A stretch of DNA of 64,000 nt, taken from the NCBI GenBank assembly GCA_001692895.1, contig KV748200.1:751343-815342 (forward strand). Reading direction: 5' to 3'. Shown here piece after piece: positions 11,365 through 59,317 of this stretch. Positions within the stretch are counted from its first letter, which is position 1; each line of letters opens with the position of its first letter. The DNA comes from Cenococcum geophilum 1.58 (lineage: Eukaryota; Ascomycota; Dothideomycetes; Gloniales; Gloniaceae). Made by a program: the position numbers and the translations under genes. The notes under the pieces were generated by a model. It saw nothing but the letters and a program-made list of their open reading frames with translations, did not search any database and had not been told where the DNA came from.

Positions 11365-12488
11365 ATGCCTCAGAACGAGTATATTGAGCGCTGGCAGAAG
11401 CTACATGGCAAGCGGTTAGTACTCCTCTCTCTGTCTGGCCACACTCGCTAATGATTTTCGCTGCAGCTTCGACTACGAAGGTATGTTTCAACCGGCATAG
11501 TGCTTCCTATGCTTCACACTGCTTATCCCTTCCCATAGAGCGTAAGCGCAAACGGATCGCTCGTGAAGGCCATAAAGCCTCTGAAAATGCTAAAAATCTA
11601 CGTGGCCTACGGGCCAAGTTGTACCAGCAGAAGCGACACAAGGAAAAGATACAGATGAAGAAGACCATCCGCGCGCACGAAGAACGCAATGTCAAATCCT
11701 CTGAAGCTGCTGAGCCATCCTCGACGCCCTTGCCTCAGTACCTGCTAGACAGGTCATCCGAGAAGAATGCGAAAGCGCTGTCGAGCGCTATTAAGCAAAA
11801 GCGGTCGGAGAAAGCAGCACGATTTAGTGTGCCGCTGCCGAAAGTCAAAGGAATTTCGGAAGAAGAGATGTTCTCTGTAGTAAAGACCGGGAAGAAAACG
11901 GCAAAGAAAAGCTGGAAGCGGGTAATCACGAAACCGACATTTGTTGGACCAGATTTTACTAGGAGACCTGTGAAGTACGAGGTAATTGAGCAACGCGCAA
12001 TCCGGATGAGCAATCAAGTACTAAATAGTGGCTTAGCGTTTTATCCGGCCCATGGGATTGCGCTATAAGAAGGCAAACGTAACTCACCCAGAGTTAGCCG
12101 TGACGGTGCAATTGCCGATTATATGTAAGGCTCTACATTCTCGTCTAATTACTAGTTTCCATTTTTTTTACTAAAATTGAATGAACAGCGGTAAAAAAGA
12201 ATCCTCAGCAAGCGCTTTACACACAATTGGGGGTCTTGACACGGGGAACGGTAAGCAAATTGTGAAGTGAAATACCGCTCTGTCTGACAAAAATCCACGC
12301 AGATTATCGAAGTAAATGTGAGTGAGCTAGGACTTGTCACAGCAGGTGGAAAGGTTGTCTGGGGTCGCTACGCTCAGATAACAAATAACCCGGAAAATGA
12401 TGGGTGCATCAACGCGTAAGTTACGCCGCCAATAAAAGCCGTGAACTAAAGATATTCGCTAATACCTCTCAGTGTTTTACTTGTTTAA
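11365..12488 (+). CDS. nsa2: Ribosome biogenesis protein NSA2
   Basis: Nucleolar pre-60S assembly factor needed for 27S pre-rRNA processing. Seven exons are inferred: 11365-11414, 11467-11480, 11539-11981, 12037-12124, 12189-12250, 12303-12415 and 12473-12488. They encode 261 residues, the usual NSA2 length. The second exon is only 14 bp. The N-terminus is [20 protein letters not shown]. Basic helices follow ([30 protein letters not shown]). The eS8-like C-terminal barrel contains [28 protein letters not shown] and [19 protein letters not shown], ending NAVLLV. Six introns in 1.1 kb is dense for a fungus, but every junction has GT/AG ends and restores the conserved frame. Confidence 0.95.
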
Positions 12489-13131
12489 GAATTCTGTGAA
12501 ATTTCACAAGCATTGTAAGGCGTATGGCGTTGGTGTTTTGATAGTCTTCAGTAATGCCGATAGAATGACGGGCTCGAGGAGAAATGAAGGTGCCTGCTAT
12601 CGGAGTTTTGTGAACGTCATGCAGGGTTCAGTAGATGTTCTAAGCTGCCCCTTTCGGTCATCTTCATTTGCAATACAAAGCATAAGAGTAGAAGAGTGAA
12701 TAACCTTAAGGTTTTCAAAATGACAAGCTAAAGCCTGATATTTGTTTTCCTTAAGGATTCATCTATTTATATAATATACCCTATTATTCTATTAATTGGA
12801 CTCTCTATTTATATTTTTACTCTATAATTAAAGCCAAAGTATAAATTTACTAAAGTAACTAGTAGGCTTATATAGAATAAGGGCTACAGAGGTATTAATT
12901 AGTAGTAATATTAAATATTAATTTTTATACTAAAGCTACTACCTTTTACTTAAGAGTACCTTAAGAAGAGGCCTAGTCCTATCATTTAGAAAGATAAGAC
13001 TCTAACTTACGCCTACTAATATTAATTAACTATATATAATATATAGAACGTTTAACGCCTTCTTTGGAATAGTAACTTTTATAATTTAAATATAATTAAG
13101 CCTTACTAGCCGTATATAAAGAGGGTTATTA
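12489..13131. other. AT-rich island, RIP-like, left of the satellite
   Basis: From ~12700 the sequence becomes strongly AT-rich with TATA, TTAATTA and TAATATTA strings, stop codons in all frames and no gene. The sharp change from the normal composition of NSA2 suggests old repeat DNA mutated by RIP. I cannot name the original element. Confidence 0.65.
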
Positions 13132-15494
13132 TTGACCCGAGGTACGAGTGGTCTATATATTCGGGTTGGGGGTCCTGGAATTCAAACTCCCGCCAAGCCA
13201 GCTTCTGATTGGTTAGAAAGCCAGCTTCTCATTGGTTAGAAAAAAAGTTGCGCGCGGTAAGTTGTGGCAGAATCCATGCGACGAACTTCAAAACACCGAA
13301 AGCTCTGCAAGGGCTCTGCACCAAGCTCTACCGCCTTGCAAAGCTCCATACGAAGCTCCGTACGAAGCCCTACCAAAAGCTCTACCAAAGGCTTTGCAAC
13401 ACCTCTACCCACCCAGTGTACTGGCCACGCAGTGAAATAGAACACGAAGTGTGCAGGGGGGTCCAAGGGGTCTCCCCTTAAGGCTCTACTCGAAGCTCTG
13501 CTTAATGCCCTATACGAAGCTCTAAAGCTCCACTAACACGCAGCACTAATATACTAGGAAGTCTCATAATTGTCTCTACGAACATCTCTACAAACACCTC
13601 TACGACGGCTCTACAATTGCCCGTACAATCATCCGTACAAACGGCTCTACAAACGGCTCTACAAACGTCTACACGATCGCCCGTACGAACGCCCATACAA
13701 TCAATCAGTTAAACGTCTATACGATCAATCGGTCAAACGCCTATACAATCAATCAGACGCCCGTATAAACGTCTCTACGAACGTCTACAATCGCCCATAC
13801 AATCGTCCGTACGAACGCCTATACAAAGCTCTACTCGAAGCTCTACTCGAAGCTCTATTAAAGCTCTGCATGGAGCTCTACTAAAGCTCTACAAAAGCTC
13901 TACACGAACCTCCGTACGAAGCTCTGCAAAAGCTCTACTAAAAGCTCTACCAAAGCCTCTACCAAAGCCTCTGCAAGAGCTCTGCCCACGCAGTAAATGG
14001 AGCACGCAGTGCGCAGGGGGGGGTCCAAGGGGGTCTCCCCCTTGAGCTTAAAACTCTACTTGAAGCTCTACTCGAAGCTTAATACGGAGCTCTAAAGCTC
14101 TACTAACACGCAGCACTGATATACTAGGAAGGCTCTATAATCGTCTACACGAACGACTCTACAAACGGCTCTACGAACGTCTGCACAATCGCCCGTACGA
14201 ACGCCCATACAATCAATCAATCAAACACCCATACAATCGATCAATCAAACGCCATACGAACGATCAATCAAACGTCCATGCAATTGGCCTATACAATTGT
14301 CTCTACAAACGTCTCTGCAGTTAATCGCCCGTGCGAACGCCTGCATGTGGCTCTGCACAAGGCTCTGCACCAAAGCCTCTACCACTCTCACGAAGCTCTA
14401 CCAAAGCTCCGCATCGACACCTACCAAAGCTCTACACGAAGCTCTACACGAAGCTCTACCGAGGCTTTGCACCAAGCTCTACCAAAGCTCTGGACAAAGC
14501 TCTACCATATCAAGCTCTGAACACGAAGCTCTACCAAAGTTCTGCACGAAGCTCTACCGAAGCTCTACACGCAAGAAGCTCCACCAAAGCTCTGCACGGA
14601 AGCTCTACCGAAGCTCTGCGCACAGAGCTCTGTAAAAGCTCTACCAAACGCTCTACCAAAGCCTCTGCAAGAGCCCTACCCTACGCGGTAGATAGAGCAC
14701 GCAGTGCGCCAGGGGGGGGGGGGGGGTCCAAGGGGGTCTCCCCCTTGAGCTCAAAGCTCTACTCAAAACTCTACTTGAAGCTTAATACGGAGCTCTAAAG
14801 CTCTACTAACATGCAGCACTGATATACTAGGAAGGCTCTATAACGGCTCTACAAACGTCCGCACGATCGCCCGTACGAACGCCCATATAATTAGTCGATT
14901 AATCGATCAATTGCTCACATAAACGCCTATACGATCAATCAACCAATCAACTAAATGCCCGTACGAACGTCTCTACGAACGGCTCTACAAATGGCTCTAT
15001 GCACGGCTTTACGCACAGCTCTACAAACGTCCATACAATTGATCAATCATCAATTGCCCATACGAACGCCCGTACGAACGATCAATTAAACGCCTATACA
15101 ATTGCCTATACAATCGTCTCTACAAATATCTCTGCAATTAATCGCCAGAACAAACGGCTGCACGTCTACACGTCTGCACGTCTGCACGTGGCCTCTGCGC
15201 AAGGCTCTGCACGAAGCTCCGCACGAGGCTCTACCAAAGCTCTGCACGAGGCTCTACCAAAGCTCTGCACGAGGCTCTACCAAAGCCCTACACAAGACTC
15301 TATTAAAGCTCTGCACAAGGCTCTGCACAAGGCTCCGCCTAAAGCTTACCCCTACTGCGAAGCATGACGGAGGCATAGGATTTACGAAACGAATCCATAC
15401 CTACTAGTATATGTTAATTAAGCTCTATACAATAAGGCTCTAAATTAAAGCTTTGGGTTAATTAATCGGCTTATTAATTATAAACTCGGGTCAA
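13132..15494. repeat. Complex satellite of GCTCTAC-type short units with a higher-order period
   Basis: About 2.2 kb is built from imperfect 10-12 bp units around GCTCTAC, GCTCTGC, AAACGGCTCTAC and GAACGCCCATAC, interspersed with AATCAATCAATCAAACGCC-like blocks. A ~150-bp anchor block recurs three times. It carries a G-run, GTCCAAGG(G)GGTCTCCCC, and CAGCACTGATATACTAGGAAG. The CAGCACT of the anchor falls at 13541, 14111 and 14814, giving higher-order periods of 570 and 703 bp. The satellite lacks stops in several frames because its unit lacks them, so long open frames here are not evidence of genes. AT-rich islands flank it. TTGACCCGAG at 13132-13141 occurs inverted at 15485-15494 and may mark the edges. 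Confidence 0.85.
13196..13241. repeat. Two-copy 23-bp direct repeat with CCAAT-type core
   Basis: AGCCAGCTTCTGATTGGTTA and its continuation is repeated immediately with one change (GATTGG to CATTGG). Both copies contain ATTGG, the reverse complement of the CCAAT box. It lies at the left shoulder of the satellite. Confidence 0.7.
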
Positions 15495-16023
15495 AATTTT
15501 CGTTGGGGGGTACCAACGATCCGCATGTTATATAATAAAGCGCCGTAGAATAGGAAGGTTATAATAGAAGACTAATAGGCAATATAAAGAGATCTTGAGT
15601 AGTAGAGAATTTAGGCTTAGATTGAGCGGATTATTAGGCATATCTAGAAGGTTATTAGGCTTAAAGGAGGCAACGGGTATAGGGAGGGTGCTATAGAGGC
15701 ACTAAGACGCACCTAAAGCGGGAGAGGACGAATGAGAGGATGTCTAGATTTGGAAGGCGGTGAGCTAAGGCGGTGAATTTCTTGGCGGCAAAGACTTTTG
15801 CAACCTCCGTACCTGGCTGCGCTTTGCGTCGCAGATGGGTGACGGATTCGAGGGACTAGAGAAGTATCACATCATCTAGGCTCGCGCCAGCTGAACGGCC
15901 AAAAAAAGCTAATGTGTCCCACAGCTGGGTCGTGGTCGACCCTTATTTAATACGACGGATTAGCAAAGCGATATAAAATCCGCATAACAGGTTAATGAAT
16001 CAACCAAGCTAACACAACCCATC
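15495..16023. other. Right satellite flank and putative promoter
   Basis: AT-rich decayed sequence to ~15700, then near-normal composition leading to the gene at 16024. I see no recognisable coding remnant. The last ~100 bp includes TTATTTAATACG, which could serve as a promoter element for the downstream gene. Confidence 0.5.
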
Positions 16024-42263: not shown

Positions 42264-43976
42264 TCACAGTTTCGCCATCTTGTTCACGTCCAGCATCGTC
42301 TCAATCTTCTGTTTCCAGAGCTGAACGGCCTCCTCATCAATAGCATTTCCGTCAAATGAAACACCGAAACGTATGCCGTCGGACTCGGTTCCACTACCAA
42401 CCAAGAACTCGTTGTCCCTTGCTCTGACTCCCATTCGTATAGATCTAAAGTCTGCTGCAAAATCTGCTGCGTTTCCAACATTTTCCAGTTTGTGCATTCC
42501 AGGATGGAAGAAATGGGTGACCGAGCCCACCGAGCTCACACCGCATGTAGCACCAGACAAAATCATATTCGCAGGGTATGAGCCTTGGGGGTTAATGCCT
42601 GTCCGCCGCTCAGGAGGGAGCTTTGATTCCCCCCGTTCGATTGCTACAAGATAGCTATTAGCAATCAAGCGAGCCACACTACGGGGAGCTAGCCCGACGT
42701 TGAGCTCGGTCGACCGCAATCGTTTCTGGTAAGTACAGAGTTGTCGATGCGCCTGCCGGGCGATTAATTTGAACCTTCCTTCGATATCCAGATCTGACGC
42801 CAGAAACGGTAGCACGATGCCGTCGCTGAATGCAAGCATGCAAGAGTCTGACGGGCCACTGTAGCCGAAGAACGCTCTAGGATTGAGAGGGAAAGAAGCA
42901 ATGAAAGGACGACGTTCAGAGAGCGGGATATCAGGGTGACGCACTTCCTCCAGCTCCATCATGGTAAGTGCTACCAATGCAAAGCAACCAGCACCTATAC
43001 TAGCATTTGCCGCCCGCGTTAACTGAACAAAGCGGCTTGATGCCTTTCGGCTTAGAGAGGCGGTACACTGGAACGAATTTAAAAGGGGCTTTCGCTCAGG
43101 GGAGTAGTTGAAAATCTGAGAGTATGTCGGCGGCATCTCAACCGACGATGGCAATCTTTGTATTCGTCTAAGCGGGTTGGCAAACGTTGGAGGAAGAGGC
43201 CGTCGAACATGCCGCAAGATTCGCATGATAGCCCAGAACCAGCGCTGTCTAGCCAAACTACCAGAGACAGGAGGATAAAGATCCTCTTGAGCCGGTGGCA
43301 AGCGTGACGATACATTCTCACGGGTGAGAAGGAAGCTCAAATTTTTCTCCAATTCCGGTAACGGCGTGTTCAGAATTTGAATGAGATGGGACATCCAATG
43401 GAACATGGAAAGGCCGTCTGTGATCTCATGTGCCACCACAATAAGGAGGCGAAGACGAGAATTGCCATTTGGCAGCAGTTCCAGTGGTAATACAAAAAGT
43501 CTTGATAGGGATTCATCCGGACTGAGGACCCTGGCGGTATTTAAGCAATGACGGTACAGGTCATTTTCGTCGACGTTTTGATAGTAGTCATTAATGAAAA
43601 CAACAGACTTCGAAGCTCTCTGCAGCGCCTCCTGGCTGTCTCCTAAGAGCTCTACGGCAAAATGTCTCTGCGCGGAGTGCTGATTGCGAAGCACTCTTGC
43701 CAGCATAAGAACATGTTGAAGCCGCAAGCTAGCCCATGCAAGCAGAATCCTCCTACGAAACTCATCAGGATTCAACGCACTCCGAATCTCGAGAGTAAGA
43801 AGAGCGTTGACATCTGCTCGGCCTTCGTAGTCGGAGCCATCGGTGTTGAAAGATGACTCGACTAAGCCAAGCGGTCGTCTATAAGCCTGCTTACCATCAA
43901 TCTGGATCTCTTCCCAAGTATGATAGTTGTTAGCATATCTGGCAAGCCAATTAATTGACGCCTTGTGCTGCTCCAT
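42264..43976 (-). CDS. HxxxD-type CoA-dependent acyltransferase (condensation-like fold)
   Basis: The 570-residue protein is encoded by one exon. I chose the ATG at 43976 (MEQHKASINWLARYANNYHT); longer starts upstream are open but low in conservation signal. The central LLIVVAHEITDGLSMFHWM supplies the HxxxDG catalytic motif of chloramphenicol-acetyltransferase-like, BAHD and condensation-domain enzymes. A second part with ASIGAGCFALVALTMMELEE and FPLNPRAFF fits the C-terminal half of such a two-lobed enzyme. No partner biosynthetic genes lie nearby, so the substrate is unknown. A transferase acting on an alcohol or amine with an acyl-CoA is the general expectation. Confidence 0.75.
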   Translation of the reverse strand: MEQHKASINWLARYANNYHTWEEIQIDGKQAYRRPLGLVESSFNTDGSDYEGRADVNALLTLEIRSALNPDEFRRRILLAWASLRLQHVLMLARVLRNQHSAQRHFAVELLGDSQEALQRASKSVVFINDYYQNVDENDLYRHCLNTARVLSPDESLSRLFVLPLELLPNGNSRLRLLIVVAHEITDGLSMFHWMSHLIQILNTPLPELEKNLSFLLTRENVSSRLPPAQEDLYPPVSGSLARQRWFWAIMRILRHVRRPLPPTFANPLRRIQRLPSSVEMPPTYSQIFNYSPERKPLLNSFQCTASLSRKASSRFVQLTRAANASIGAGCFALVALTMMELEEVRHPDIPLSERRPFIASFPLNPRAFFGYSGPSDSCMLAFSDGIVLPFLASDLDIEGRFKLIARQAHRQLCTYQKRLRSTELNVGLAPRSVARLIANSYLVAIERGESKLPPERRTGINPQGSYPANMILSGATCGVSSVGSVTHFFHPGMHKLENVGNAADFAADFRSIRMGVRARDNEFLVGSGTESDGIRFGVSFDGNAIDEEAVQLWKQKIETMLDVNKMAKL

Positions 43977-44424
43977 GGCTTTGCAGCTTGCAAGTTGTAG
44001 GTTAGAGGTTGCCGGTTGGAAGCAACAGGAAGCGGTGAAGCGGTGAAGCGGTAATGCAGTCTGGCGGTATGAGTAAATTAGCGTTGCTGTAATTATTGCA
44101 GCTGTTGCTTTCTTCATACAATTGAATTGCACCAAGGCCGTGAATACTTCAGTCGTGCCAGATGGGTCTTCACAGCAGTTGGTAATCATTTTGAGAGATT
44201 TCGTGTTCCGCATTCAGCCATCTTATCCTTCGACTTTCATTAATGAAGTTACAGCAGTCGAGGAGCGAACTCGCTTTTCAAGTGCGGAGTGCTCATTCCA
44301 GCATTGGTCTATTTAATCGAATCCCCGACACTGCTCAGAAGGCGAACTTCAATGCATGGCACACATTATTTCCCACCCGAGAATCAAATCCTATCGTCTC
44401 TCGTAACATCAATCTAACATGCCA
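43977..44424. other. Intergenic region
   Basis: 448 bp holding the acyltransferase promoter and the eIF3d 3' end. A GAAGCGGTGAAGCGGTGAAG triple repeat lies near 44030-44050. Confidence 0.5.
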
Positions 44425-52060: not shown

Positions 52061-52663
52061 TCTGGCTGGTGGTGTCTAGATGGTAGGTAAAGAGAGAGAT
52101 TCTAGGAAATACAGAATTCGAGGCAAGATTCGGTTGAGGGTTTTCACAGACGTGAACTGTCGTCTTGGTGTCGTAGCATGTCTTTCGGCGGATGTTACGG
52201 ATGGGATGCCTGAGGCCGCTTCAGGCCCCAATAAAAATATTGCCAAAAAGCAATTGGACAGCATTTCAGCGTGCTCAGCTCGCTTGAGGCATTTCGGCTG
52301 CTCACTACGAGACATGCAAACCACCTATTGAAACCATCCCGCAACAACCCTTATCCCCTTCCTCTGGCACGTCCTCGCTGTTCTAACTAATCAAATGGCT
52401 CAGATAAACACTGGACGAACGCCAATTTAAAGCTTCTAAAATACAGTGTAAAGCTTTAAAATTATCCCCTGCAAAATGTGTCCTATAGTTATCGATAAGG
52501 AAGCCAATAGAATTAATCGGGTCAAGTTAGGATACCTAGCTAAATAAACTATCTTTATTATACATTTAGCTAAATATTAAAGTAAGATATCTACTTTTAG
52601 CTAAGGATTATATTATAGGACCCCAGGTCTAGAATATAAAAGGGGATATTATATTAGCGTTAT
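52061..52663. other. Promoter region passing into AT-rich DNA
   Basis: The first ~300 bp has normal composition and should hold the wax-synthase-like promoter. From ~52420 the sequence turns AT-rich and RIP-like, marking the left edge of the accessory island. No gene was seen. Confidence 0.55.
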
Positions 52664-52997
52664 AGGCAAAACTCCTTAATACGATACCGGGCATATAACG
52701 ACACATTTGGTATTACGATCTACATGCCCTAATCAAGCCTTTTTGGTGTAACTAACGATAATCTGACTTTTGATGATATTGTTAAGCTCTACCACCAATA
52801 TCGGTATAACTAGTTGTATGAGAAGGGCGTATATCTGGCCCATAAGTAGGGAAATCTATAACCTTTAGGCTTTAAGATCCACTTTTTATTGAATTTTACT
52901 GCTTATTCACCCTATACGTGACTCTTGATATAACAATACCATTGGTATTACGATATATTTGGCGCCAAAACCCATATCATACTAAGGAGTTTTGCCT
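52664..52997. mobile_element. Small inverted-repeat element (probable MITE relic)
   Basis: 334 bp bounded by inverted repeats. The left end is AGGCAAAACTCCTTAATACG; the right end, read on the other strand, is AGGCAAAACTCCTTAGTATG. The two 24-25 bp arms differ only by C/T and A/G transitions, as RIP would produce. A TTGGTATTACGAT motif appears near both ends. A target duplication is not clear (TTAT against GTAT). The interior is AT-rich and noncoding. Confidence 0.6.
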
Positions 52998-53989
52998 GTA
53001 TCTATTAAGCTCGGGCCCCCGGAATTCGGTCGCCCCAGCCGAAGGCTAGGCTTGGCACCTCCTTATAAGCTCCTCGGGCTTGCAGCCCTCTTCCTCTCTT
53101 CATCGGTTCGTCTCTGCAGGCTATGCCTATAATCTTTACTATATCGTCCTCTCTTCCATCGACTCTCCTGTGACCCTTGCTCGGCTTGCCCACTCCCTAC
53201 CGTATACCCTGGCAATATGCTTCACATTACGTGCCTTATTATCCCTTCCGCTGGCGCGAGATGCGAACACCAGAATCAAAAGTACGCGTAAATTCACGGA
53301 GGTTTGATTCTACTGGTTCTATTGGCCAGCTCTTATCGATAATAGTAGAACGAAATATACCTGCTAAAGGGATAGTTCTACTAGGTCTATATAGTCTGTA
53401 CTATTATTAGCTAGCTAGCTTCTGAGAGCTCCTCGGGTAGTTCTAATATTCTAACTATAAGGTCTATAATACTACCTCCCTCCTCTTAATCTTCGTCTTT
53501 AAAGATATTTTATATCTCTAAGTTACTTATCTAAGGTGCCGTATTCCTTAATTTAATTTAATTTGGTCTTAATTATTCCTTTATAAATATTGGTATAGGT
53601 GAAAGCGATGCTGATTTCACTAGATGGGGTCCTCTTATTTTAGATCCCTTCTTCTAAAGGAAATACTTCCGGCTAAGCGCGTACTAAAGTTCGTGGCTGT
53701 AAAACTTATCCGCTTTCTAAACTTTATAAGGCCTTGTTTCTCCCTTAGACATCCTAATCTATTTTAGCTAGCTGTATCGTCGTTCGATGTCGGCGCCGCC
53801 TGCTTGTCCGGCAAGAAGGCCACGGTGCTGACCGCCCTCAAGCTGTCGGTGAACCAAGCTCTTTTACAGCGCGAACACAGAGTAGAGCAATACGTTTGAA
53901 GAGGTGCTTCCTCGATAATTAAACGGTTTTAGAGGATGAATCGCTTAGCATCATGGATAAACGCTTAAGTATAAGTTAAAAATAAAGAC
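52998..53989. other. Decayed repeat DNA downstream of the NLR
   Basis: Mixed composition. 53000-53300 is near-normal but has no recognisable protein, and 53400-53760 is AT-rich. 53765-53900 is a GC-rich patch with a short open frame (residues like FDVGAACLSGKKATVLTALK) that looks like a fragment of a coding sequence I cannot identify. Probably transposon or gene debris. Confidence 0.45.
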
Positions 53990-56900
53990 CTAACAGGATC
54001 TTAAAATCTGTATCACGGCCTTATGCCTTCGCTCTTCCGCTAGCTGTAGCGCAGTTAGTCCGAACTTCTCCTTCGCGTTGACATCCACCCCTTTCTCCAC
54101 CAGCAGCCTCGCCACCGCCTCGTCCCCTCGATTTACCGCTGTGTGCAGCACCGTCCATCCACCAGCATCCGTCGCGTTGATATCCGCCCCCAGCTCCACC
54201 AGCAGCCTTGCCACCGCCTCCGCCCCTTGCTCTACCGCCAGATGCAGCACCGTCCATCCACCAGCATCCCTCGCGTTAACATCCGCCCCTTTCTCCACCA
54301 GCAGCCTTACTGCCGCCTCGTCCCCTCGCTTTACCGCCAGATGCAGCGCCATCCATCCTTCCGCGCCCTTCGCGTTAATATCCGCCCCCAGCTCCACCAG
54401 CAGCTTTGCCACCGCCTCATGACCTCGCTCTGCCGCTAGCCGTAGCGCTGCCCGTCCACCTGCGTCCTTTATATTAATGCCCGCCCCCTTCTCTACTAGT
54501 AGCCTCGCCGCCGCCTCGTCCCCTCGCCCTGCCACTAGATGCAGCACCGTCCACCCACCAGCACCTCTCGCGTTGATATCCGCCCCCAGCTCCATTAGCA
54601 GCCTCACCGCCGCCTCGTCCCCCCGCTTTACCGCTAGATGCAGTACTGTCCATCCACCAGCATCCCTTACGTTAATATCCGCCCCCCTCTCTGCTAATAG
54701 ACTCGCCGCTACCTTATTCCCTTGCTTTACCGCTAGATACAGCGCCGTTAATCCACTAGCATCCCTCGCGTTAATATCCGCCCCCAGCTCCACTAGCAGC
54801 CTTACCGCCACCTCGTCCCCTCGCTCTGCCGCCAGATGTAGTACCGTCCATCCACCAGCATCCCTCGCGTTAACATCCGCTCCCCTCTCTACTAGCAGCC
54901 TCGCCACCGCCTCGTTCCCTTGCTTTACCGCCAGATACAGCACCGTCCATTCACTAGCATCCCTCGCGTTGATATCCGCCCCCAGCTCCACCAGCAGCCT
55001 CACCGCCGCCTCGTCCCCTCGTTCTACCGCCAGATGCAGCATCGTCCATCCACCAGCATCCCTCGCGTTGATATCCGCCCCTAGCTCCACTAGCAGCCTC
55101 GCCGCCGCCTCGTCCCCTTGCTTTACCGCTAGGTGCAGCATCGTCCATCCATTAACATCACTCGCGTTGATATCCGCCCCTAGCTCCACTAGCAGCCTCG
55201 CCGCCGCCTCGTCCCCTCGCTTTACCGCTAGATGTAGCGCTATCCATCCTTCCACCTTCTCTACTAGCAGCTTTACTACCGCCTCATGACCTCGCTCTGC
55301 CGCTAGATGTAGCGCCGTCCATCCGTCCATGACCTTCGCGTTGACGTCCGCCCCCTTCTCTACTAGTAGCCTCGCCGCTGCCTCGTCCCCTTGCTCTACC
55401 GCTAGATGTAGCGCCGTCCGTCCGGCCACTTGTAATAGTGTCTCTCCGGCGCTGTCTGGGCAATCAAAATCGTCGGTATAGTCCAGAAGAATCGTTAGGA
55501 TGTTATCGAATTTCGCATTATAGTTAGCGCATGCCCAATAAACTGGTAGCCGCCCTTCCCTATCTTTAATATGAGTATCTGCACCAGCCTCCAGCAATAG
55601 CCTAACAATGTTGACATTCCCGAATTGCACAGCTCCATGCAGTGGGGTTTCTCCATCAATTTTGAGCTGGTTAATATCCTCTGGTTTCATTCGAGAGAGT
55701 AGAATGCGTGCGATAGCTTCATTACTTTTCCATTCACCTGTGACCCGCAAAATAGTGTCCCTAGCAACATCGGAGCTCTGTTTATACCACGATAGTAGAT
55801 CCCTTAGTATTTCGACGGCTCCGCTCATTATGGCTGCGTGAACGTAGTACCGTAGACCCGGAGCTGATGAGACCAGAAAAGCGAGCCTTTGATGCTCACC
55901 TGCTGTCTCCACGAGAATACGGAAGAGATCATAGTCTCGTCGCTCAATTGCTTCCTCCAGCGCCGTCATTACTCTCCAGGATGTGCCAGCATCGGTAAGG
56001 TAAACCTGAGCCCCGCGTAGAACCAAATACTGACAAACCAGAACATGGCCTTTTCTAGCGGCCAGAACTAGTGGTGTCAATCGTCCTTTGGGTTGCGTGG
56101 TTACATCCACATCAATTCCCTGACGGATAAATGCTTTCACTGCATCAAGATCACCTTTGGCACATGCAGTGAAGATATCTGTCTTCGTTGTGGAAGGCGG
56201 GAACAAGGGCTGAGGGCTGGCACTATAGGAATGAAGGCGCTTGACGTGGACGTCCAGGGCTGATTGAGATGGAAACCCGATGCTGCGAGCATAGCACCCT
56301 TCATTCGGGCACTTGAATGGCCGTTCGTGCTCTTCGACGTGGGCATCTCGAGTTTGTCGATCCATAAATCCGAGAGCGAACATTTGGCATCGTGGCTTCG
56401 GGCATTTGAAATGAGGAACTCCATTGAGCCCAAGAAAAACTGTTTTTCTTTGATCATCCAGCCTTGCAAGGTCAATCAATTCGATGACCCTCCGAATGGC
56501 AGACGTTCGTTCTTCGAACGAGTCCTTTTGGCCGTTGTTGCGCCATTCTTGCAGGATTTTCCGGATCTGTTGCGCTGTCGGACTAGGCTGAGAGCCTAGA
56601 GTATTTGATCCAGTCTGTTGCATTACCTTATAGTCTCCAAGAAGGCAAATGACGGACCCGACAATGTTCTCAGAGAGTTCCACAGGGACATCGGCGGCGG
56701 GGTTTAGCACGGAGTCAACGTGGTGATGCCAAAACGCAGCCGCGTAATCTTGAAGGCTGTAATATCCAGAGAGAGCGAACTCTCGGATACTTCGCTCTCG
56801 AAGACCATGCTTAAATGGACCGGAGGTCAGGTATCGAGAGCAGAAAACAGCCATCTTGGCGTGCTCTTTGAAAAGGAAAATTCGACCGGTGTGAATAAGA

Positions 56901-59317
56901 TATCTACAAATACCATAAGCTCGTGTTCTGATAGTTGGATCTCTTGTAAAGAAGGGCAAATGACTTAGACGTGGCAACCTACTCTCCAGCAGTGTCGTGA
57001 ACAAGGCTTATAACAATTTCAGCCTCAGATGCTGTTCCCAAGTTGCACTGGTCGGCTTCGACAAGTGATCCGCAGAGGACCTTGCAACCGTCGACCCGGC
57101 GATTCTTAAAATTGCAACAGCCTTGCTCGAAATCGATACAGAATCGCGATTGAATCTCCCTCCACCGGAGAGGTCTGGCAGCGCAGGTTATCCAGCCCAG
57201 TATCCTTGCAGCAGCTTCTCTTCTCGGCTGAGCGGGACGTTCGAGAACCCGGACGACCACGCGCTCGTACCTGTCGACATCTTTTAGCTTTAGAGTGCCC
57301 ACCAATGGAATTAAAAGGGGCGCTGTACGCCGAATTTAGCCCGTCTGGAAAGTTTTCCGTTTTCAGTTCATCTGCGAGCTCGGCTTCTGATCCTTGGTGC
57401 ATGAGGTTGTCCAGCACCACCTTGGCGTAGAGGAACATCCCTGTGAGACAGTGTGAGTAAAGTGGGCATTTTAATGAACCCTTAAACATGTGGGAGAATG
57501 CCGTATTCACCTTTTGAGGCTGCTGTGACTCTCCTTATTATCTCCGCTTGATCATCACGGCTAAGAGAGAATCTTTCTCGTATCTCAGATGTTCTGGACA
57601 CTGTATAGTCCTGAATATCGCGAAGATGTGCATTAGTGGTGTCTAACTTAATGCCCGGGTATGTAGAAAGGTGTTGGTCAAGAACACCATCCCTCTGCCC
57701 GGCTAGGAACAACCGGATACAACCTCCCTCGGAGTGGGAAGTTGGTATAACGGAGTTCCCGAACCACTCAATGATACCCTTTGATTCTTCGTGCCTAGTA
57801 TTCTGGCCATCTCCACACTCGTCTAGGCCGTCAAGAACAATCAGGCAGCGGTGCTGGCTCTTCAAGCTTTCCTGGGCCAGTTCCTTGAGCGCAGAAAGGG
57901 TCATAAGCTCTGGTGTGCTAGTAGAACAGCATTTCTGATAGAAGTACTCTATCAATGTGTCGTCCTGATAGAGCAACTGAACTAGTAGGGCACGAAGCAT
58001 TCCACCCATGGATTTCTTGGTTTCTTCGTGGTGCTTGAAATAAAAGAACAGAAGAGGTGTCCTGGAAGCCGTTGTCTGGGATCTCAGGTGATCAATGATT
58101 CGTGACACAAGAATTGTTTTGCCTAGTTTCTTTGTCATTTTCCTGGACGAAAGACCGGATTCTCACCGCGCCTACTTACCAGCACCCGGCATGCCATGCA
58201 TATACAGTGTACTATATGACGGGTTTCGTGAGTCAAGCCAGTGCAAAAAGCTTGGGTCCTTCAGGATCCAATCTCCGGACGGAGAAAAGCGCTGTTCTGA
58301 AGCCCGGTGCTGATCCGCTTCATAGTCTGGAGGCCCTAGCTTCTCTGCTATAATGCGTCTTTGTAGACGCAGCGCTTCCTGCTGTTCTCTGGCCTCCTTT
58401 TCGGCCAACCTTTCCTGAATTTCGTACAATTGCTTCGATAGCTCTTGGAACCTGCTGTATAGTTGCTGCGAGAGCTCATTAAATCTGGTCACGTTGAATT
58501 GGCGGATGTCTTGAATCTCTGCAATGGCTGTCGTCAACTTCTCATCCGACAATAAGGTCCTGTGACGCTTGAGGCTGTCAAGAATTGGCTTGAAACTAGT
58601 TTCAAAGGTCTTCCAGGCAGACCTCAGGACCGTCTCCCAGGCTGCGTACAATTCGATTAGTGTTCACTATCCAGCTTGTGGTATTGGGGGTTCCAAGGAT
58701 GCCTAACCTGGTCTTGCAAATAAGTCAAGTGCCTTTCTGTGGAATTGAAGGATGTCGTAGAAGTACCGCTCGAGTACTTCCTTCACAGCAGGGCAATTTT
58801 TGAAGAGTTGGTCGTATTGCTGAAGGCCAGGAATGACCTCGCCGATTTCAACATAAGTGTCAAGCAAACGCTCAAGGACGTCGATTCTCGTGCCGGCCAC
58901 CTTGCACGGCCTGTCAGTTTCTCTTTTCAAGTCATTGACTGACTATTCTGAGTGCTCGTACCACAAGAGCGAGTTTTATGGGCCCCTATTTGAAACCTCA
59001 GCACGTTGGGAGCCTGCGGCTAGCTATCCCTCTACAAAGAGGGCATGAGCACTTACCCATACGAATGCCACGACTTCGTGGACGTTGAGAAACACTTTGA
59101 TGACTTGCTCTATCTGCTTCATTGCTTCGAGGAACTTAGAGACTTTCTTCAAATTTCGCAGCTTTTTCTCTAAACCAAAGCGATGCTGAATGTTTTGGAT
59201 TTCCGACTCCACATCTTCGAAACGGGTTGCCGAAAATTGACGTTTCTGCTCTTCCGTGAGGCTATCTCGAAACCGTTCTAAGGCTTTGTTGAAAGTATTC
59301 TCAGGCCCACTGGCCAT
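53990..59317 (-). CDS. NLR-type STAND protein: DUF7708-like - NACHT - C2H2 x2 - ankyrin repeats
   Basis: Fungal NOD-like receptor candidate, 1,621 residues. Eight exons are inferred: 59317-59057, 58985-58962 (24 bp), 58900-58708, 58641-58180, 58122-57511, 57440-57329, 57270-56983 and 56903-53990; all junctions keep frame. The N-terminal ~160 residues (VWGPIKLALV, then RLLDTYVEIGEVIPGLQQYD) match the DUF7708-type domain found before fungal NACHTs. A coiled coil follows. NACHT has Walker A GMPGAGKT (309-316) and Walker B LIVLDGLDEC (~407-416). A winged-helix-like stretch (ILGWITCAARPLRWREIQ) follows. Two C2H2-like fingers are at C818/C823/H839/H843 and C849/C854/H870/H875. Degenerate ankyrins (~890-1135) and 15 highly similar ones end the protein. 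Such proteins sense non-self or trigger heterokaryon incompatibility; no ligand is known here. Confidence 0.88.
54010..55440 (-). repeat. Coding array of 15 near-identical 99-bp ankyrin repeats
   Basis: Each unit encodes about 33 residues of the form DAGGWTVLHLAVERGDEAAA followed by RLLVELGADINAR. Alternation is concentrated at a few sites: VKRGD/VEQGD/AERGH/VKQGN, VEKGADVN/VELGADIN and the D/G-A-G/S/E positions. The second unit lacks the GADVNAK end and runs straight into the next unit. The last unit is degenerate (EKFGLTALQLAEERR). Many DNA differences are C/T changes at synonymous sites. Confidence 0.88.

What the first reader, a model, noticed from the sequence alone, without database searches (positions are those of the whole stretch)
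53990..59317. Intact NLR with a repeat-built recognition domain
The sequence shows a full DUF7708-like/NACHT/C2H2/ankyrin protein with all eight inferred exons in frame. Its sensor end is 15 ankyrin units so alike that they must have been recently duplicated or homogenised. In fungi, high internal repeat identity is a known mark of NLRs evolving fast through repeat shuffling. This is a strong candidate for a non-self recognition or incompatibility receptor.
Basis: partly seen in the sequence, partly recalled or inferred. Interest (0 to 1): 0.78.

Follow-up and report, generated by a model that had tools for sequence, protein, structure and literature searches.

The report
Fungal immune-type receptor with ankyrin array
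This is an intact fungal immune-type receptor gene whose repeated sensor varies mainly at likely binding positions, while the rest of the repeat carries marks like those of fungal anti-repeat mutation; it belongs to a known kind of gene and is a useful test case rather than a surprise.

Summary
The gene is real and intact: eight exons, minus strand, 59317-53990, seven GT-AG introns, 1621 aa. It encodes DUF7708, NACHT, a winged helix, a C2H2 pair that Pfam did not report, and ankyrin repeats ending in 15 similar units. It is an ordinary NACHT-ankyrin fungal NLR.

"So alike" is overstated. The 13 full units average 68% protein and 79% DNA identity, under the published 85% mark. Six of 12 other arrays compared average 76-88%. 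Still, 13 of 13 units are closest to their own array, and replacements concentrate at presumed binding positions, as in 11 of 12 other arrays.

New here: differences between units look RIP-like. Third-position transitions are 3.7 times commoner in CpA context, and codon bias is reversed outside the array. RIP-type changes make up 60% of synonymous framework differences but 3% of replacement differences at binding positions. Framework replacements are hit as often as silent sites. This bears on a question left open in 2007: whether RIP diversifies NLR repeats. Function is untested: no second strain, transcript or phenotype.

The parts
53990..59317 (-). whole gene, 8 exons, 1621 aa
59057..59317 (-). 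exon 1 (start codon at 59317)
58962..58985 (-). exon 2 (24 nt)
58708..58900 (-). exon 3
58180..58641 (-). exon 4
57511..58122 (-). exon 5
57329..57440 (-). exon 6
56983..57270 (-). exon 7
53990..56903 (-). exon 8 (C2H2 pair and all ankyrin repeats)
58520..59143 (-). DUF7708 domain, residues 59-200 (introns included in span)
   Evidence: Pfam PF24809, E 3.6e-12
57743..58210 (-). NACHT domain, residues 304-440, with GMPGAGKT and LIVLDGLDEC motifs (intron included in span)
   Evidence: NACHT 39.9 bits; NPHP3_N 112.3 bits over residues 281-421; motifs read
56891..57221 (-). winged-helix domain, residues 572-655 (intron included in span)
   Evidence: PF22939
56231..56404 (-). tandem C2H2 zinc-finger-like pair, residues 818-875
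   Evidence: ligand spacing, conservation in 6 aligned sequences; no Pfam match reported
53993..55423 (-). array of 15 ankyrin units (residues 1145-1621) with RIP-like variation between units
52661..53000 (.). about 340-bp high-copy genomic repeat in the AT-rich 3' flank (not part of the gene)

Best explanation
The gene encodes a fungal NLR (STAND) receptor. Its C-terminal ankyrin solenoid is the ligand-binding sensor, the NACHT-winged-helix part is the nucleotide-dependent switch, and the N-terminal DUF7708 plus helical region is the output module. The sensor evolves by exchange of units within its own array, with replacements kept mainly at binding positions. The array has also received RIP-like CpA-to-TpA mutations, at silent and replacement sites of the framework alike and seldom at binding positions, and its frame has stayed open. 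Shown here: gene structure, domains, within-array similarity, focusing of variation, mutation spectrum. Inferred: ligand binding, switch, output, exchange as the cause of similarity, RIP as the cause of the spectrum, and a role in non-self recognition.
For: Intact 8-exon frame and Pfam domains. Each of 13 full units has its nearest of the other 170 units compared in its own array; within 0.79, between 0.55. Entropy is higher at seven presumed binding positions than elsewhere, mean 1.39 against 0.58 bits, p 3.4e-4; 11 of 12 other arrays give p<0.05. Third-position transitions: 0.416 in CpA context against 0.060-0.141 in others, ratio 3.66 (column bootstrap 2.27-6.32). NTA 54 of 112 against other NNA 50 of 237 inside the array (OR 3.48), 33 of 93 against 226 of 410 in the rest of the gene (OR 0.45). 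Targets hit: 0 of 15 stop-making, 44 of 104 silent framework, 36 of 67 replacement framework, 3 of 20 replacement at binding positions. The genome has an open methyltransferase frame with the RID-type EQT triad and another with ENV (triads from PMC6709928, passages).
Against: No transcript, allele or phenotype data. pN/pS at binding positions is 0.88, not above 1. At composition level the CpA effect shows on the template strand only: T before A on the coding strand is 20 of 30 against 48 of 78, p 0.66. Framework replacement targets are hit no less than silent ones (36 of 67 against 44 of 104), so selection against RIP replacements in the framework is not seen. Units are related and differences are counted over pairs, so p-values are too small. 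The binding-position numbering is recalled from designed ankyrins. The gene was picked because it is intact, which weakens the zero-stop argument. Five of 12 other arrays show no codon-level CpA excess, two of them the reverse. Motif IV of the RID-like frame reads PCC, not PCQ.
Confidence: 0.72

Rival explanations
1. The protein is a STAND scaffold with a housekeeping or developmental role; ankyrin variation is mere drift at permissive surface positions.
For: Binding-position pN/pS is 0.88, compatible with relaxed constraint. Four of the six neighbouring frames scanned match housekeeping-type families (eIF3 subunit, phosphodiesterase, MBOAT, SNF2-related), two match nothing; no second NLR was seen beside it.
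Against: The genome shows 86 NACHT and 215 Ank_2 matches (lower bounds, not all candidates scored), as in expanded recognition repertoires. Units resemble their own array.
Confidence: 0.2
2. The CpA bias leaked in from the RIP-marked flank downstream and was not caused by recognition of the array itself.
For: The flank 52500-53999 is AT-rich with raised TpA/ApT and holds a high-copy repeat. Unit 15, next to the flank, has 2 of 3 scored silent sites hit.
Against: No gradient: the bin nearest the flank, 54000-54249, has TA/(CA+TG) 0.27, bins further in 0.44-0.81, and bins in the rest of the gene 0.05-0.57. Of silent sites classed unambiguously, units 13, 14 and 5 have none of 9, 7 and 8 hit, units 1 and 8 three of four each. 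Some other arrays elsewhere in the genome show the bias too.
Confidence: 0.12
3. The gene is a young pseudogene being degraded by RIP.
For: RIP-like changes are present, also at framework replacement sites; unit 2 is 8 residues short.
Against: No stop or frameshift in 1621 codons and intact Walker-type motifs. Framework pN/pS between units is 0.43, bootstrap 0.35-0.53.
Confidence: 0.05
4. Unit number and order are partly an assembly artefact.
For: Short-read assemblies of NLR arrays with high internal conservation were unreliable in Podospora anserina (PMC12222747, passages). How this genome was sequenced is unknown.
Against: Units are 64-91% identical in DNA and no two are identical, so they should assemble more easily than such arrays; the frame stays open.
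Confidence: 0.1

Closest known systems
[quoted passage not shown]
   Same: NACHT plus tandem similar ankyrin units; variable positions mostly on the concave helix and hairpin/loop surface
   Different: N-terminal domain is DUF7708 here; units are under 85% identical here; polymorphism among strains was shown there and is not testable here
HET-D/HET-E (HNWD) incompatibility NLRs of P. anserina, PMC1805685 (passages; section 13)
   Same: NACHT NLR with homogenised sensor repeats; possible RIP input into the repeats was raised there
   Different: WD40 not ankyrin, HET domain not DUF7708; repeats there undergo exchange between family members, here 13 of 13 units are closest to their own array; the silent RIP signal there rested on few sites (8 of 9 CpA mutated)
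C2H2-containing NLRs of Sordariales, PMC12258605 (passages; section 14)
   Same: NACHT-type NLRs with C2H2 fingers exist (34 NLRs with C2H2)
   Different: There, only 16 zinc fingers lay next to canonical repeats, all treble-clef; here a C2H2 pair sits between winged helix and ankyrin repeats
Tuber melanosporum NACHT-ANK family with 3-bp mini-exons (mentioned in PMC9815663, passage)
   Same: NACHT-ankyrin NLRs with a diversified sensor
   Different: No mini-exons here; the whole array lies in one exon

Membership tests
Fungal NLR (STAND) proteins | NACHT or NB-ARC domain with nucleotide-binding motifs | tested here: met
   PF05729 39.9 bits against cut-off 26.7; NPHP3_N 112.3 bits against 24.8; GMPGAGKT and LIVLDGLDEC in the sequence
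Fungal NLR (STAND) proteins | C-terminal superstructure-forming repeats | tested here: met
   Ankyrin matches; single-sequence model of residues 1040-1621, mean pLDDT 73.7, pTM 0.42, mostly helix pairs; best PDB matches are ankyrins, TM-score by query 0.39 for the first
Fungal NLR (STAND) proteins | N-terminal effector or signalling domain | tested here: inconclusive
   DUF7708 matched, but its activity is unknown; no paper of the library holds DUF7708 together with 'fung'
High-internal-conservation NLRs (Dyrka et al. 2014) | repeats over 85% identical over at least 100 aa | tested here: not met
   Mean 68%; best run of 3 units 83%, of 5 units 76%; their own procedure was not rerun
Heterokaryon incompatibility genes | allelic polymorphism causing cell death on fusion | not testable with these tools
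   No other strain and no phenotype available
RIP-affected sequence | C-to-T changes biased to CpA in repeated DNA | tested here: met
   Ratio 3.66 at third positions, bootstrap 2.27-6.32; reversed codon bias outside the array; composition effect on one strand only; direction of change inferred, not observed
RIP-affected sequence | RID-type methyltransferase in the genome | tested here: inconclusive
   730-aa frame with EQT triad, Pfam DNA_methylase 111.4 bits; motif IV reads PCC; no tree was made
C2H2 zinc fingers | two Cys and two His at C2H2 spacing | tested here: met
   C-x4-C-x15-H-x3-H and C-x4-C-x15-H-x4-H; 7 of 8 ligands invariant in 6 sequences, the eighth in the same column in 5
C2H2 zinc fingers | recognised by family models or fold | tested here: inconclusive
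   No C2H2 model reported by Pfam at E<=10; structure model too poor, mean pLDDT 41.5

The most novel reading that the evidence does not exclude
RIP acts on living NLR arrays as a brake and a clock rather than as a source of new specificities. It scatters CpA-to-TpA changes through the framework of the units, lowering identity between them and so limiting unequal exchange, while diversity at binding positions comes from other mutations filtered by selection. This array would be one that has drifted out of the high-identity exchange phase.
Probability: 0.22. Interest if true: 0.65.

Novelty: new member of a known kind. Interest (0 to 1): 0.42.

Why it matters
Paoletti et al. (2007, PMC1805685; section 13 read) asked how far RIP feeds diversity into NLR repeats and said that their silent targets were too few for convincing statistics. 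This genome offers many ankyrin arrays; 13 were compared here. They allow the CpA load and the replacement pattern at binding positions to be separated, and in the window array the two hardly overlap. I did not search for every later answer to that question; the two searches on RIP with NLRs or arrays listed no paper whose title or abstract claims one.

Tried and rejected
Coronavirus spike matches to the N-terminal part (60 of 90 rows shown, best E 0.0088; Pfam CoV_S2 21.5 bits against cut-off 40) are taken as chance coiled-coil resemblance. No solved relative of DUF7708 was seen in the rows shown. Rfam reported nothing in the window at gathering thresholds. The single-sequence model of the winged-helix/C2H2 region was too poor to use. 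The ankyrin model supports the fold class only. A link between array identity and CpA ratio over 13 arrays was not significant (Spearman 0.34, p 0.25). Comparison between strains could not be done. The fungus was not identified: 177 Mb resembles the 178 Mb of Cenococcum geophilum (PMC5023957, passages), which is no proof. RIP is not mentioned under that name in that paper (no hits for 'rip' or 'repeat-induced').

Rows dropped: units 2 and 15 (shortened) are left out of the 13-unit statistics. Other arrays: units with stops or N, units matched over fewer than 20 model positions, and arrays of fewer than six units were dropped. The first array extraction (used for arrays other than the window) read only one strand of the loci and was replaced. 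In one search the same procedure applied to the window contig takes in 16 units, with older ones, at 59% protein identity and ratio 2.97; I use the 13 hand-placed units instead. Odds: the novel case was lowered from 0.25 to 0.22 on checking, because framework replacement sites are hit as often as silent ones.
Full report
WHAT WAS CHECKED. The window lies in a 177-Mb genome of 162 contigs. That it is a fungus is inferred from its introns and gene content. The gene model was rebuilt by hand from donor and acceptor sites. Eight exons on the minus strand give 1621 aa without internal stop; all seven introns are GT-AG and 57-79 nt long. Junctions at residues 87, 95, 159, 313 and 651 lie inside continuous Pfam matches. 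The other two (residues 517 and 555) rest on frame and splice sites only.

ARCHITECTURE. Pfam gives DUF7708 (residues 59-200), NPHP3_N (281-421), NACHT (304-440), a winged helix (572-655) and ankyrin repeats. A C2H2 pair at 818-875 was not reported by Pfam at E<=10. It is nevertheless conserved: in an alignment of the window with five other loci of this genome, 7 of 8 metal ligands are invariant and the eighth is in the same column in five of six. A search with one such stretch found 11 places, 8 of them at E<=2.1e-11, counting the query's own locus and the window. At one of the eight, on C59, an ankyrin match lies about 0.8 kb downstream on the same strand. In Sordariales, C2H2 fingers were not reported next to canonical repeats (PMC12258605, section 14), so the arrangement is uncommon or overlooked.

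FAMILY CONTEXT. The best-scoring other locus for the first 1141 residues (C99) is 31% identical over residues 96-525 and 44% over 514-628; no close duplicate appeared among the 40 of 408 candidates scored. The genome shows 86 NACHT matches (88 of 162 candidates scored), 215 Ank_2 (150 of 1373 scored) and 29 DUF7708 (51 of 51 scored). By my reading of the two tables, 5 of the 29 DUF7708 matches lie within 3 kb of a listed NACHT match on the same strand; the window's own DUF7708, split by introns, is not among the 29. Of six neighbouring frames scanned, four match eIF3 subunit, phosphodiesterase, MBOAT and SNF2-related families, and two match nothing.

HOW ALIKE THE UNITS ARE. The 15 units are 13 full, one of 25 aa and one of 23 aa. 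The 13 full units average 68% identity in protein (39-91%) and 78.5% in DNA (64-91%). The published mark for high internal conservation is over 85% over at least 100 aa, reached by 10% of ankyrin repeats of fungal NLRs (PMC4986451, passages); the best run of three units here averages 83%. Twelve other arrays with six or more usable units were taken from loci that the NACHT, NLR-protein and array-DNA searches had brought in; they are not a random sample, the model that found the units was built from the window, and loci may hold parts of arrays. Six of the twelve (C11, C13, C17, C18, C2, C4) average 76-88% protein identity, so the window array is not exceptional. Among 171 units of 13 arrays, the nearest other unit lies in the same array for 13 of 13 window units and 155 of 158 others. 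Identity does not fall with distance along the array (means 0.76-0.82). This fits exchange within genes, followed by divergence.

WHERE THE VARIATION SITS. I took as binding positions the seven that are varied in designed ankyrins (unit numbering 2, 10, 11, 23, 30, 32, 33). This set is recalled; passages of two papers (PMC6590788, PMC8683736) confirm that surface positions are randomised but do not give the numbers. Entropy is 1.39 bits there against 0.58 elsewhere (Mann-Whitney p 3.4e-4); 4 of the 7 most variable positions belong to the set (p 0.023). Of 12 other arrays, 11 give p<0.05 and one (C18) does not; several have units of 34-35 residues, which were cut to 33 in register. Dyrka et al. 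reported a similar surface for Podospora ankyrin units. pN/pS between units is 0.88 at these positions (bootstrap 0.59-1.23) and 0.43 elsewhere (0.35-0.53). So the surface is relaxed or diversifying; positive selection is not shown.

RIP-LIKE SIGNATURE. 80% of differences between units are transitions. At third codon positions, C/T differences (both strands) occur in 0.416 of CpA-context comparisons and in 0.106, 0.141 and 0.060 for CpC, CpG and CpT; ratio 3.66, column bootstrap 2.27-6.32. By strand the figures are 0.427 against 0.157-0.182 on the coding strand (no CpT comparison available) and 0.413 against 0.060-0.133 on the other. In codon terms, NTA makes up 54 of 112 NTA+NTG codons in the array against 50 of 237 for other NNA, and 33 of 93 against 226 of 410 in the rest of the gene, the reverse. 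The coding-strand counterpart at composition level is not significant (20 of 30 against 48 of 78). In the 12 other arrays the third-position ratio is above 1 in all 12 (1.17-3.27). By codon composition five (C11, C110, C2, C3 minus, C9) show the template-strand excess at p<0.05 and two more (C13, C17) the coding-strand one; five (C16, C18, C29, C3 plus, C4) show neither, and C3 plus and C4 lean the other way at p<0.05 (uncorrected). RIP in N. crassa needs copies over 80% identical and over 400 bp if linked (as cited in PMC1805685). A 99-nt unit is far shorter; the 1.4-kb array laid on itself one unit out of step would meet the length and nearly the identity, which is inference. Dinucleotide bins of the array reach TA/(CA+TG) 0.81, but the bin nearest the RIP-marked flank has 0.27 and bins in the rest of the gene 0.05-0.57, so the bins overlap. 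Hits per unit at silent sites range from none of 7-9 (units 5, 13, 14) to 3 of 4 (units 1, 8); unit 15, next to the flank, has 2 of 3.

MACHINERY. A methyltransferase search gave four matches in three places: a 730-aa open frame on C58 with the EQT triad of RID proteins and motif IV reading PCC (L066); a frame on C13 with ENV and one unreadable base (L067); and a broken piece on C110 with four stops. The triads come from PMC6709928 (passages). Whether RIP is active now is not known.

RIP AGAINST RECOGNITION DIVERSITY. Counted over pairs of units, RIP-type changes are 202 of 339 synonymous framework differences, 126 of 746 replacement framework differences, 10 of 48 synonymous and 18 of 525 replacement differences at binding positions. 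Counted by target, 44 of 104 silent framework, 36 of 67 replacement framework, 2 of 7 silent and 3 of 20 replacement targets at binding positions, and 0 of 15 stop-making targets are hit (a TA facing both CA and TG counts under both). Leaving out such ambiguous sites, over all 15 units, 29 of 96 silent and 17 of 72 replacement targets are hit. Naive Fisher tests: binding against framework replacements p 0.002, stop against silent p 0.0009, framework replacement against silent p 0.16. So RIP-type change is not kept out of framework replacements, but is rare at binding positions, partly because these hold few targets. All 15 stop-making targets lie at binding positions, in line with the tryptophan at position 2 (10 units) and CAA at position 11 (5 units). 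Units are not independent and the gene was chosen for being intact, so the zero is only suggestive.

HOW IT PROBABLY WORKS. A ligand is bound along the ankyrin surface, the NACHT-winged-helix switch opens, and the DUF7708/helical N-terminus is clustered to give the output, possibly cell death. These steps are inferred from the NLR class. Which ligand, and whether self/non-self or another microbe, is unknown.

VERDICT. A well-preserved, ordinary NACHT-ankyrin NLR. The value lies in the RIP-like and recognition signals, which can be told apart here.

Noticed in passing
window 52661-53000: About 340-bp element; 47 further matches listed in the genome, best 94% identical (40 of 3312 candidates scored); probably a short transposable element or solo terminal repeat.
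   Followed up: partly
window 12001-16000: Second stretch of the window with RIP-like dinucleotide indices (TpA/ApT 1.40 and 1.29).
   Followed up: no
L066 329-2521: RID-like methyltransferase frame with EQT triad but PCC instead of PCQ in motif IV.
   Followed up: partly
L067 1-3192: Methyltransferase frame with ENV triad, DIM-2-like by motif only (recalled name); runs off the fetched stretch and holds one N.
   Followed up: no
L017, L026, L013, L029, L031: Tandem C2H2 stretch in loci brought in by the NLR search; Pfam did not report it in the window protein. May deserve its own family model.
   Followed up: partly
window 55249-55250 (unit 2/3 junction): Unit 2 is 8 residues (24 nt, in frame) shorter than the others, at the stretch that would form the hairpin to unit 3.
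   Followed up: no
window 42264-44213: 649-aa open frame on the minus strand without Pfam match at E<=0.001.
   Followed up: no
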